A stretch of 64,000 nt of DNA from Nymphaea colorata (taxonomy: Eukaryota; Streptophyta; Magnoliopsida; Nymphaeales; Nymphaeaceae): assembly GCF_008831285.2 (NCBI RefSeq), contig NC_045146.1, positions 2,754,001 to 2,818,000 of the forward strand. The letters run 5' to 3'. Within the stretch, counting starts at the first letter, position 1; the number at the start of each line of letters is the position of its first letter. The notes below the pieces were generated by a model. It saw nothing but the letters and a program-made list of their open reading frames with translations. It had not been told where the DNA came from and searched no databases. A program made the translations under genes and the position numbers. Positions 18,442 through 39,840 of this stretch are shown here, in pieces.

Positions 18442-18446
18442 CTATG

Positions 18447-18689
18447 TGATAGCTTTCAAGGCTATCGATCGACTGGTACGGTGGAAGAACTGACTGGTAT
18501 GGTGGAAGAGAGGAAGAGAACGAGGGGGAGAGAGATCATGAAAGAGAACAAAACATCAGAATAATTTGCATTATGGCTAATCACGCCCAAAAAGAAATTA
18601 CAGCATAAGCAAAGTGGCTGCCTACTAAAGTTTCGATAGAAACTGACTGATCAACCCAAATATAACATAAACTAAAACAGAGCCTAACA
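18447..18689 (-). repeat. 3' LTR of the gypsy element
   Basis: 243 bp, bounded on plus by TGATAGC and CCTAACA and preceded by the duplication CTATG (18442-18446). It carries an internal ~20-bp duplication of the CTGGTACGGTGGAAGA region that the other LTR lacks. The purine-rich tract next to it (minus AAAAGGGAAGAGTAAT, 18690-18705) is a good polypurine tract for plus-strand priming. Confidence 0.9.
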
Positions 18690-18705
18690 ATTACTCTTCC
18701 CTTTT

Positions 18706-19159
18706 GAAAAACACCTTATCCTCAAAGTGTGAATAATGGGATGATAGTCACTCAGTAAGTCATTGGTGATGCCATTTGCTGTTTATCTTTACCTTATTCA
18801 TATTAATGCGTTGATAAGGTGATAGGTCAGTTGCTGCTTCTACAATGGGGGTAGAGTCGATATCTTCATCGGGGGGAGCGTTGGTGCAAAGCTTCAGTTT
18901 GGATACATGGCATACCATATGGATAGAGCTTCCCTTAGGAAGTAGGAGCTTGTAAGCAGGTTTACCTATCTTTCGGCTGATTTTCTAGGACCCAACATAA
19001 TGAAAGAGTAGCTTTTGTTGTTTGGATCCTCTTAATCGCGTGGTATGCTGCAGGAGGCCTCTTCAAAAATACCCAATCACCCTCTTGAAACATCATTGCT
19101 CTATGGTGGCAATTGCATTGTATGACCATGCGATTTCGGGCTGCAGCAATGTTCCTTTA
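18706..19159 (-). pseudogene. Gypsy integrase C-terminal region, broken
   Basis: Minus translation in two frames shows FQEGDWVFLKRPP, then HYVGS with a stop, KISRKIGKPAYKLLLPKG and SIHMVCHVSKLK. These are the usual post-core region of plant Ty3/gypsy integrases, where a GD-W-F-L-K motif is followed by the Y-K-L-P-x-G, I-H-P-V-F-H-V-S-x-L-K type tail. At least one frameshift and one stop are present. The reading continues from 26167 once the TTA-flanked insert is disregarded. Confidence 0.85.
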
Positions 19160-20260
19160 AAAGCCGTTTGATAGCAATGGAACAGGCTAGAACAGACAGG
19201 TGCGTTTCATTTATTAAAATGTGCATCAAACGCTGGACAGAGCAGACACTGGGACAAGGGTATATATTTCTCCCATGTCCTGTACCGTTCTGTGGTTAAC
19301 CACAGAACTGACAGGACGCTCGCTCGCTCGAGCTCGCCTCCCTGTCTCGAACTCTCGATACTCATCTCTCTCTCTCATTTCTCTCCATGAGTGCTTGCAC
19401 ACTGCTCGATGCTATGGAGATGAAGTCTGTCTCTCCCATCACTCACCATGAGTCGCTGCTCACTACTCCTCACAATGCGCCAGTGACGATATCCAGCGAT
19501 CAATTGCTATTTGCACTCTTTCTCCCTCTCTCAATACCTGGATTTCTCGCCCATCTCTTGCTGCTTACCGTAGTTTAGCAAGTATGACTGTTCTTCACCA
19601 TCTATGTTCATTCTTCTCTCAATCTCCATCTTCTGAATGATGAGTTTAGGGCATAATAAAAGGCTATGGTCTCATACTCTAACTGATGACCATGATCTAG
19701 AGCTTCATGAGAAAGTCATCGAGCTCTCTCAATCATTCTCTTTCTCTCCAGCTTCAGCCCTAAATCCCATGAGATGCTTCATTTGCAGCCCTTCTACAGC
19801 CTCTTCATAGCCAGCTTCATATCCGTCAAATGACACATTTCAACCCCTTGATGGCTAGCTTCATCCCTATATTCGTGGAACACCGCCTCATTGCAGCCCT
19901 TCTACAGGTAGGGCATAGATTTCTCTCATTCACTCTATCTTTCTTTCTCACCCTTTCTCACTCATTGTCTACTTTCCTCACTCAAATTGTATTTTAGTAG
20001 GAACAACACATTTGCAGCTCTTTCGAAATTATGTATCAAGACTTGCACTCCATGTGTTTGATAAAATGTTTGATCTAAGAGACTCTTTTGACAATAAAAT
20101 ATCTCGGGATCTCGCTATGATTTTTTTTTAAACTTGTTAGATTCATAATGTTGCTCCCTGATGAATGATGAAAATCTCGCTCTGTAAAATCAGTTCATGT
20201 CCATGCCTCTAAACGATAACTTACTACCGAAGGACGAAATTTTTATCACTCCAACTGTGC

Positions 20261-20268
20261 CTATAAAG
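20261..20268 (+). promoter_or_regulatory. TATA box of the 63-codon ORF
   Basis: CTATAAAG lies 96 bp before the ATG at 20364. That spacing would give a leader of about 65 nt, normal for a plant promoter. Function is inferred. Confidence 0.45.
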
Positions 20269-20363
20269 CGAAGAAGCAAAATCAGTCAGTTTCCACTCTC
20301 ACTCTCGGCTTTCACTTTGCACACATCTTAGATTTCCGTAACACAAGGCAGTACCACATTACC

Positions 20364-20555
20364 ATGGACATATTTCAGAATGTAAACAGAGGTTTGGAAG
20401 CTCCCCTGCAGTCCTTTCCACCAAAGAGGGGAAAAGTGAAGGCAAACATTTGGAAGAAGATGAAGGCAGCAGTTTTCTGCAAGAAGGTTCATGACTCCAT
20501 GGCTGCTGCAAAGTATTCTCGGTTGCCATCGTCATCATTGAAGGGTAAAAGTTGA
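20364..20555 (+). CDS. Small hypothetical protein, 63 aa, inside element A
   Basis: An intact ATG-to-TGA frame. It is rich in Lys, Ser and Ala, with a basic centre (PPKRGKVKANIWKKMKAA) and a C-terminal half KKVHDSMAAAKYSRLPSSS. No signal peptide or membrane segment is seen. It has a TATA box at 20261 and a CT-rich leader. The codons look more gene-like than the AT-rich surroundings. I do not recognise the family with certainty; the PKRG-K-K core resembles small plant proteins of unknown function. It could be a gene fragment captured by the transposon. Expression is unknown. Confidence 0.4.
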   Translation: MDIFQNVNRGLEAPLQSFPPKRGKVKANIWKKMKAAVFCKKVHDSMAAAKYSRLPSSSLKGKS

Positions 20556-37631: not shown

Positions 37632-37639
37632 CCTAATTG

Positions 37640-39060
37640 TATCAAAATCGCAGCAAAAAATTGGCCAGATGATTCCCACTTCCCTTTCTTGCAACGACGT
37701 TATCTCTACCCTTTCTGTGTTTGATCTCAAAATCAAAGCTATTCAGTTTTAACACACACTTTTGTACCTCCCAAAGCAAACTCACCCATTGCAGACAGTT
37801 GCATAGGCTATGGTGATCTGTGAGGACCACAAAATGTCACCCCAAAAGATAGTGTCACCAACTAAAACTATAGCAATCAGCTCATGAACATAAGTTGATT
37901 TGTTGTGGAAGGCAGAGCCCATACAGGAGTGGGTGCCAGTTCTGGCTTAAAACAGCTCCAATGCCAACGTCTCATGCATCACCTCTACTTCTAAAGGGAT
38001 ATCAAAGTTGGGCATTTTTAGTACCGGTGCCGATGTTACCGTTGCTTTAATGCCTCATAGGCCTTTTCTGCTTGGGGGACTCCAATGGAACTCGTTCTTC
38101 TTTGTCAACTCTATCCTATCAGCAGAGCTGCTATGGTTCTGAAGTTATGTACGAGTCGTCGGTAGTATCCTGCTATGCTAGACCATGAAGTTGCTTGACT
38201 ATGCAAGGTAACGGGCTTTTCTTTACCGCTGCCACCTTGTTCGCCCCCATCAGCACACTGCCTCGACTGATTGCATGGCCAGGTACGTAACGTGAGACAT
38301 GCAGAATGCGTACATGTAAGATGTGCTGCCTCAAGAGAGATAAAACGGTGTGCAAATGCTTGAAATGTGCCTGCGCTAAACACCAAAATGTCATAAAAAA
38401 AGACAAAGACAAACCTGTGTAGATAGCACGTCATTCATAAACGTTGCTAGCGCATTGGTAACACCAAAAGGTCATGTTGCCTGAGAAAACGCCATCGGTG
38501 GCTGTTTTGACGCTTGTGCCGGCAGCGCCGAAGGTGCCAAAGGAAACGCGCAAGCGAGTGAGCCTAGGAATTTTTTGTTTTTACATTGAAAAAATCAATT
38601 TTTTTTATTTTAGCCCGACAGGTCGCTCCTCTTGGCCCAATCTTAGCCTGACCCGTAAATCGTCTTGACTCGACCCTAAAAAAAAATCCTGGCTCCGCCC
38701 CTGGCTCCCTTCGTGCTGCCGTTTTGTGGGTGGCTGTGTAGACCTATGCTCAACAGTATGCCGTAGCCCACACCCGGTGTGCCGAGGAGGGAATCGCCAG
38801 TGACTGTGTGAGGGGGCGGTGGCGGTGGTGTTGTAGGTGGGCCGAACAGAAGACAGTGAAAACTGGAGGGCATCATGGAGACCAGCGGTCACAACTGCTT
38901 GGATGGTGTTATGCAGTCTGGCGTCAGAGTTGGCTTGCGAGCATTCCATCGTCTGCAAGCAGCGGTTAACTTCGATGATAGTCTCTTCCGTCCAAGCGCA
39001 ATGTGCTTCAAGGGCGGCAAGCGTCACGTTGTCTTCAAGGGCAGCAACAGGATCTTTCAT
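37640..39060 (-). pseudogene. Gypsy gag, RT and RNase H fragments, degenerate
   Basis: On minus, an open gag-like start (ATG at 39060, just after the PBS; LEAHCAWTEETIIEVNRCLQ) runs to about 38705, where a short dispersed repeat (about 38555-38705) is inserted. RT remnants follow (FVFVFFYDILVFSAG, with Tyr where the first Asp of the usual FFDDILVYS block is expected; 38111-38434). RNase H remnants come next (LTDHHSLCNCLQ and FDFEIKHRKGRDNVVA; 37640-37830). Much of the pol between gag and RT, including protease, is missing or unrecognisable. Confidence 0.85.
38555..38705. repeat. Dispersed repeat copy inside gypsy gag
   Basis: Shares TCGCTCCTCTTGGCC, AGCCTGACC-type and AAAAAATCCTGGCTCCGCCCC segments with 8750-8875 in the same orientation and order. 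Confidence 0.55.
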
Positions 39061-39061
39061 G

Positions 39062-39074
39062 GCTCTTATACCGG
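39062..39074 (-). promoter_or_regulatory. Gypsy primer-binding site (degenerate)
   Basis: Minus reading CGGTATAAGAGCC lies directly after the 5' LTR. It differs at two positions from TGGTATCAGAGCC, the complement of the initiator tRNA-Met 3' end. Confidence 0.75.
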
Positions 39075-39075
39075 T

Positions 39076-39322
39076 TGATTGCCTTCAAGGCTATCAATCC
39101 ACTGGTACGGTGGAAGAGAGGAAGAGAACGAGAGGGAGAGAGATCAACAGAGAGAACAAAACATCATAATAATTTGCATTAGGGCTAATCACGCCCAAAA
39201 ACAGATTACAGAATAAGCAAAGCGGGTCCCTATTAAGGGACCACTCCAAACTGATTGATAAACCCAAATATAACGTAAATTAAAACAGAACCTAACATAT
39301 TAAACTAAAACAAAGCCTAACA
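39076..39322 (-). repeat. 5' LTR of the gypsy element
   Basis: On minus it begins TGTTAGGC and ends GGCAATCA. It is about 247 bp and is followed by the 5-bp duplication CTATG. It matches 18447-18689 over its length with many substitutions. A terminal ~25-bp segment is duplicated (39273-39297 and 39298-39322, both ending CCTAACA on plus), which the other LTR lacks. Confidence 0.9.
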
Positions 39323-39840
39323 CTATGTCAATCAATGATTAAGCAAGTACGGAATTTAATTAACCATTGGTAGTCCAAGAACTACATTAAAAAATATGGC
39401 CATTCAAATGCATGATTAAGAATTCTTTCTAACAAGACATTTCTTTGTCATGTTTTACAGTGTCAGACAGGTTTTAGCCTGGCTCACAAGACCTTTGTAT
39501 AGTAATGCTGTTTGTTATCCAACAAAGTCTTGGTTGCACGATTATGGATTTGAATAACAACGATAAATTCATAAATCCTGAAACTTGAAAAGCGAAGCCA
39601 CAGTTTTAAGCTAAGCACATACCCTGTCATTTCAGCACCATTGGCATTCATATTGCACTTTAGCAATATCTAGTCGGCTATGTCACACTAAATTTTCCCA
39701 TTCACATGCTGCCACGTCCTAGTCTCGAACTATTTTGATCTGTTCATTAGGCTCGTGCTTTGGTTATGCAACCCATGTCTGAAATGGCATTACCAATAGA
39801 ATGTAACACAGTGGTTGAACCTAAGGCTAAGTTTAATCTA

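What the first reader, a model, noticed from the sequence alone, without database searches (positions are those of the whole stretch)
18442..39327. One old gypsy element stretched over 21 kb by nested insertions, bounded by a shared CTATG duplication
Seen: LTRs of about 245 bp at both ends, identical outer 5-bp CTATG, and gag, RT, RNase H, integrase and PPT fragments in correct minus-strand order. Known: Ty3/gypsy integration makes 5-bp duplications. Inference: everything between is later insertion, so most of the HPGT-to-tRNA spacing comes from a single retrotransposon site plus its parasites. A domain-only annotation would call these unrelated fragments.
Basis: partly seen in the sequence, partly recalled or inferred. 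Interest (0 to 1): 0.8.

Follow-up and report, generated by a model that had tools for sequence, protein, structure and literature searches.

The report
Old gypsy retrotransposon stretched by nesting
The 21 kb stretch is one old, broken plant retrotransposon into which other DNA has inserted several times, which is an ordinary process in plant genomes, here resolved almost to the base.

Summary
A Ty3/gypsy (chromovirus-like) element on the minus strand has LTRs at 18447-18689 and 39076-39322, flanked by CTATG on both sides. Of nine relatives fetched from the same genome, eight match the remnants in one colinear order (L057 has a segment out of place), and those that keep the region run straight across the insertion points.

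Corrections. (1) The 7 kb insert is two abutting PIF/Harbinger-like elements, 19160-21219 and 21223-26163, each bordered by TTA. (2) The copia element is 26790-32335 with ATGCT on both sides. (3) The third insert is about 32420-37424. I found no transposon hallmark in it; it is a ~5 kb copy of a tandem array at C1:24.60-24.70 Mb. (4) A small hAT-like element lies at about 38547-38703. (5) Protease and roughly the first half of RT are deleted at 38470-38473.

Later DNA makes up about 84% of the span. The LTRs are of one subfamily. That they are a pair rests on the target duplication, the ends and colinearity; the LTR tree neither shows nor rejects it (p-AU 0.25). No empty site was found in this genome. 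Ordinary nested transposons; low novelty.

The parts
18442..18446 (.). left copy of the 5-bp target duplication, CTATG
   Evidence: sequence; chance 0.0014 for two random window 5-mers to agree
18447..18689 (-). 3' LTR of the gypsy element
   Evidence: alignment; 48 genome matches to the LTR query, own copies included
18690..18705 (-). polypurine tract next to the 3' LTR
   Evidence: sequence and relatives
18706..19159 (-). gypsy remnant: integrase C-terminus (SH3_Tf2-1) and chromodomain-like tail
   Evidence: Pfam SH3_Tf2-1 1.1e-6, 29.1 bits against a cut-off of 30; colinear relatives; weak Chromo hit in relative L056
19160..21219 (.). PIF/Harbinger-like element 1 (2060 bp), TTA at 19157-19159 and 21220-21222
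   Evidence: independent copy at C1:43403900-43405945 covering query 4-2064 at 88%
21223..26163 (.). PIF/Harbinger-like element 2 (4941 bp), TTA at 21220-21222 and 26164-26166
   Evidence: 27 of 93 rows start at query 2052-2069; near-full copy on C6 at 21.22 Mb (query 2060-2847 and 3038-6954)
26167..26789 (-). gypsy remnant: integrase core
   Evidence: phmmer to Ty3 Gag-Pol E=3e-9, (no Pfam hit); 40 genome matches, self included
26790..32335 (+). Ty1/copia element, LTRs 26790-27441 and 31682-32335, TSD ATGCT at 26785-26789 and 32336-32340
32326..32357 (.). 16-bp tandem duplication that doubles the copia LTR end and its TSD
32358..32419 (-). gypsy remnant: integrase zinc-finger region
   Evidence: colinear with L052, L055, L056
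32420..37424 (.). about 5 kb ectopic copy of a tandem array at C1:24.60-24.70 Mb; borders uncertain by some 10 bases
37425..38470 (-). gypsy remnant: RNase H and 3' part of RT
38470..38473 (.). deletion junction with CAT microhomology: protease and roughly the first half of RT missing (1.3-1.9 kb present in relatives)
38547..38703 (.). hAT-like miniature element with one clear end; left border uncertain
   Evidence: 23 of 45 rows match only the query's first ~57 bases (38554-38610); sequence
38704..39059 (-). gypsy remnant: gag-like region
   Evidence: matches in L054, L055, L056, L059; no Pfam hit
39060..39074 (-). degenerate primer-binding site (initiator tRNA-Met)
39076..39322 (-). 5' LTR of the gypsy element
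39323..39327 (.). right copy of the 5-bp target duplication, CTATG

Best explanation
A roughly 5 kb Ty3/gypsy chromovirus-like element integrated once between a galactosyltransferase-like gene and a tRNA-Met gene, duplicating CTATG. It then decayed: an internal deletion through short homology removed protease and about half of RT, and a small hAT-like element landed in the gag side. Two PIF/Harbinger-like elements inserted at one TTA in the 3' part of pol, the second into the TTA beside the first. A 5 kb piece of a tandem array from another contig was copied into the RNase H-integrase spacer, most likely during repair of a break. A copia element, whose LTRs are nearly identical, inserted into integrase recently. 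Shown here: the borders, the target duplications of four insertions (gypsy, copia, two Harbinger-like) and the match with relatives. Inferred: the order among the older events and the repair origin of the 5 kb piece.
For: Exact CTATG at both outer ends (chance 0.0014); the same family makes exact 5-bp duplications at L056 (CAAAG) and L054 (GGAAG), 2 of the 4 two-LTR relatives tested. PPT and PBS sit on the correct sides. Of nine fetched relatives 8 align colinearly. Relatives read CCTTTA then GGTCC where the window has TTA, 7 kb and TTA. The copia TSD is ATGCT, and L052 and L056 run across the site with overlaps of 3 and 6 bp. Independent copies define the border between the two Harbinger-like elements. 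Insert 3 matches the C1 array in 32 of 58 rows, 27 of those 32 at 72-89%, and at 89-95% once gaps are left out in the five alignments made. LTR divergence K80 is 0.149 for gypsy and 0.0047 for copia.
Against: The right LTR is closer to several other family members (up to 92.2%) than to the left LTR (84.5%). No site is shared uniquely by the two among eight subfamily LTRs, and the best tree does not pair them, though pairing is not rejected (p-AU 0.25); of three control pairs from single elements, two do pair in that tree (support 89/76 and 74/30) and one does not (p-AU 0.415). Two of the four two-LTR relatives tested lack an exact 5-bp duplication at the LTR ends. One of nine relatives, L057, is not colinear throughout. 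No empty site was found; the joined flanks match only the window itself.
Confidence: 0.92

Rival explanations
1. The two ends belong to two different insertions of one subfamily, and CTATG agrees by chance or through an exchange between copies.
For: LTRs not sisters in the best tree, and each is closer to other members; two of three control pairs do pair there; no uniquely shared sites.
Against: Exact 5-bp match at the canonical ends (chance 0.0014), correct PBS and PPT sides, remnants that together make one element in order with no domain seen twice; sisterhood not rejected (p-AU 0.25); the control pair of L054 is likewise unpaired in the tree without being rejected (p-AU 0.415).
Confidence: 0.06
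2. Insert 3 is an undescribed non-autonomous mobile element whose main home is the C1 array.
For: Fragments of it match many places (58 rows, self included; 26 of them outside the array); an A-run lies near its right end.
Against: No inverted or direct terminal repeats found; no clean target duplication seen; the two array copies read at the insert's ends (L071, L073) continue past those ends with unrelated sequence, and the A-run is part of the array sequence.
Confidence: 0.15

Closest known systems
Nested LTR retrotransposons of plants (Jedlicka et al. 2019, PMC6911290; abstract and one results section read)
   Same: An older Ty3/gypsy element carries a later LTR retrotransposon; such nesting is described in 1491 pairs from 12 plant genomes (abstract).
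   Different: Here the copia sits within integrase, which that paper reports among the least-hit regions, and DNA transposons and a host segment are nested as well.
PIF/Harbinger-like elements of Medicago (PMC2213677; passages read)
   Different: No transposase domain was found in the 8 ORFs scanned here, so these are probably non-autonomous or decayed.
Copying of ectopic DNA into breaks in plant genomes (double-strand-break patching; recalled; one search gave a search listing only)
   Same: Arbitrary segment of a distant locus, arbitrary ends, short shared bases at the borders.
   Different: The event itself cannot be observed here.

Membership tests
Ty3/gypsy (Metaviridae) LTR retrotransposon | Two LTRs with TG...CA ends | tested here: met
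Ty3/gypsy (Metaviridae) LTR retrotransposon | RT-RNase H before integrase | tested here: met
   order in the window; L056 domains in order; only the 3' part of RT is left in the window
Ty3/gypsy (Metaviridae) LTR retrotransposon | 5-bp target duplication | tested here: met
   CTATG; relatives 2 of 4 exact
chromovirus | chromodomain after integrase | tested here: inconclusive
   Chromo E=0.00051, 20.3 bits against a cut-off of 25.1, in L056; no Chromo hit in the window piece
PIF/Harbinger | TTA/TAA 3-bp duplication | tested here: met
PIF/Harbinger | TIR motif G(N)5GTT | tested here: met
   3 of 4 ends fit exactly; the left end of element 1 has A for G (motif from PMC2213677)
PIF/Harbinger | DDE transposase | tested here: inconclusive
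   No Pfam match at its cut-off in the 8 ORFs of this insert that were scanned, only two weak unrelated ones at E 0.044 and 0.053; not all frames were scanned. Non-autonomous copies lack it, so the elements are called 'like' here
Ty1/copia | gag, integrase before RT, LTR pair, 5-bp duplication | tested here: met
   Pfam (rve itself below its cut-off; gag, gag_pre-integrs and RVT_2 above); LTRs and ATGCT
hAT miniature element | two TIRs and an 8-bp duplication | tested here: inconclusive
   one clear end, decayed other end, no clean duplication; the end motif is recalled

The most novel reading that the evidence does not exclude
The third insert is not a transposon but a 5 kb stretch of a tandem host array from another contig, copied into the retrotransposon by break repair through about 4 shared bases at each border, so an old transposon served as a landing site for host DNA.
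Probability: 0.55. Interest if true: 0.3.

Novelty: new member of a known kind. Interest (0 to 1): 0.17.

Why it matters
It shows that a stretch that a domain-only annotation would list as unrelated fragments is one insertion site with a readable history, and that same-genome relatives fix each border. The biology itself is standard for plant genomes. The one less usual part is the ectopic copy of a tandem array.

Tried and rejected
Rejected: insert 3 ending at 37631 (relatives match from 37434); insert 3 as a polyA retroelement (a shorter A-run stands at the same place in the array copy L071); insert 3 as mainly coding sequence (no Pfam match at its cut-off in the 4 ORFs inside it and 1 across its right border that were scanned, one weak hit at E 0.079; of the indels against array copies 13 of 54 are multiples of three); the 7 kb insert as one element. 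LTR sisterhood: tree, AU test and shared-site count did not settle it; two short LTR rows were dropped before the tree (26 of 28 used). Rfam at gathering thresholds gave only the tRNA in 17000-43000. Ten ORFs of the flanking DNA gave no Pfam hit. Copia copy number and a genome-wide galactosyltransferase search did not complete.

Full report
The window lies at C9:2754001-2818000 of a 407.8 Mb genome in 783 contigs.

Observation. The outer LTRs are 18447-18689 and 39076-39322 on the minus strand, with CTATG directly outside both. They align at 84.5-86.5% depending on the columns used, K80 0.149 over 222 columns (14 transitions, 16 transversions). At the three rates that I put into the script (2.5e-9, 7e-9 and 1.3e-8 per site and year, recalled as used for plants) this is 30, 11 or 5.7 million years. 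The left LTR lacks about 25 bp at its inner end that the right LTR and other subfamily members carry, and has a 21-bp duplication of its own among those eight rows. The PPT is at 18690-18705 and a degenerate PBS at 39060-39074; the tRNA-Met at 41929-42000 has a 3' end whose complement, TGGTATCAGAGCCAGGTT, matches the PBS of relative L054 over 14 bases.

Relatives. The LTR query gave 48 matches (40 of 42 candidates scored; own copies included), the integrase piece 40 (40 of 77 candidates scored) and the RNase H/RT piece 45 (40 of 121 candidates scored). I fetched nine places with LTR matches, eight of which also align to the integrase (L052-L060), and mapped them against 18001-40000. Eight are colinear over what they keep; L057 has a gag-side segment out of order. 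L053 and L058 show the 3' part only, and L059 lacks the integrase. L056 shows protease, RT, RNase H, integrase zinc finger, SH3_Tf2-1 and a weak chromodomain in order.

Junction A. 19159 and 26164 are neighbours in relatives, which read CCTTTA-GGTCC; the window has TTA on both sides of 7004 bp. Overlaps of exactly 3 bp are seen in L053, L054, L055, L056 and L058 (5 of 9); L052 overlaps by 8; L057 and L060 have 2 and 8 bases between the two matches; L059 has no integrase. Inside, CATCGAACGACCTC-TTA-GAGGTCGTTTGATT at 21206-21236 is a right end, a TTA and a left end. So two elements of 2060 and 4941 bp abut. Independent copies bear this out: C1:43403900-43405945 matches element 1 (query 4-2064, 88%) with no element 2 row beside it; 27 of 93 rows start at query 2052-2069; C6 at 21.22 Mb holds nearly all of element 2 (40 of 667 candidates scored).

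Junction B. The copia element 26790-32335 has LTRs of 652 and 654 bp (3 substitutions in 645 columns, K80 0.0047; 0.18-0.93 million years at the same rates) and duplicates ATGCT; a 16-bp tandem duplication follows at 32326-32357. It split the integrase between the zinc finger and the core. By BLAST L052, L055 and L056 are contiguous here (3 of 9), L054 by eye.

Junction C. Relatives have 33-39 bp between the counterparts of 32394-32400 and 37434 (L052, L055, L056), so the insert is about 32420-37424. It has 58 rows in the genome, self included (40 of 509 candidates scored), 32 of them at C1:24.60-24.70 Mb in a tandem array. Four array pieces fetched match at 89-95% without gaps in five alignments. 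The two that reach the insert's ends continue past them; TGCA at the left border and CGAT at the right are common to array and gypsy relatives, by eye. No Pfam match at its cut-off was found in the 4 ORFs inside it and 1 across its right border that were scanned. I read it as an ectopic copy made in break repair; that is inference.

Deletion and hAT-like element. Relatives carry 1.3-1.9 kb more at 38470-38473 (L055, L056, L059), which in L056 includes protease and about the first half of the RVT_1 match; the window joins through CAT. About 38547-38703 ends in CCTGGCTCCGCCCCTG, the recalled hAT end motif, and its stretch inside the query matches 23 of 45 rows.

Are the LTRs a pair? For: the target duplication, orientation marks, one set of remnants in order. 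The LTR tree of 26 rows does not pair them; holding them together costs 0.75 log units (p-AU 0.25). Of three control pairs, two are paired in that tree with modest support and one is not. No site is unique to the two among eight LTRs, but for the other pairs the number is 0 or 1 as well, so these data say little.

Setting. Galactosyltransferase-like exons are readable at about 12.9-17.6 kb (by eye; Pfam Galactosyl_T E=0.00057 on one of six pieces, below the cut-off). The span is 20.9 kb, of which roughly 17.6 kb is later DNA. The joined flanks match only the window itself and no empty site was found. Two papers were consulted: PMC6911290 (abstract and one section) and PMC2213677 (passages). 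Nested elements of this kind are well described, so novelty is low.

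Noticed in passing
41929-42000: tRNA-Met gene whose 3' end complements the primer-binding site of gypsy relative L054 over 14 bases and also the bases just after the copia 5' LTR; it lies 2.6 kb from the gypsy element.
   Followed up: partly
L060:1733-7182: Another member of the gypsy family has its integrase split by a 5.4 kb insert with TG...CA ends and ATAGT on both sides: probably a second nested LTR element in the same domain.
   Followed up: partly
54556-54572: A further Harbinger-like end (CATCCAACGCCCTC followed by TTA) outside the finding.
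   Followed up: no
39888-40267: Direct repeat of about 180 bp with a 202-209 bp spacing, 83-85% alike, just beyond the right flank.
   Followed up: no
L071-L074 (C1:24.60-24.70 Mb): A 100 kb tandem array that is the likely source of insert 3; its genes, if any, were not identified.
   Followed up: partly
18447-18689: The left LTR carries a 21-bp duplication and a patch of about 30 bp not seen in the other subfamily LTRs.
   Followed up: no
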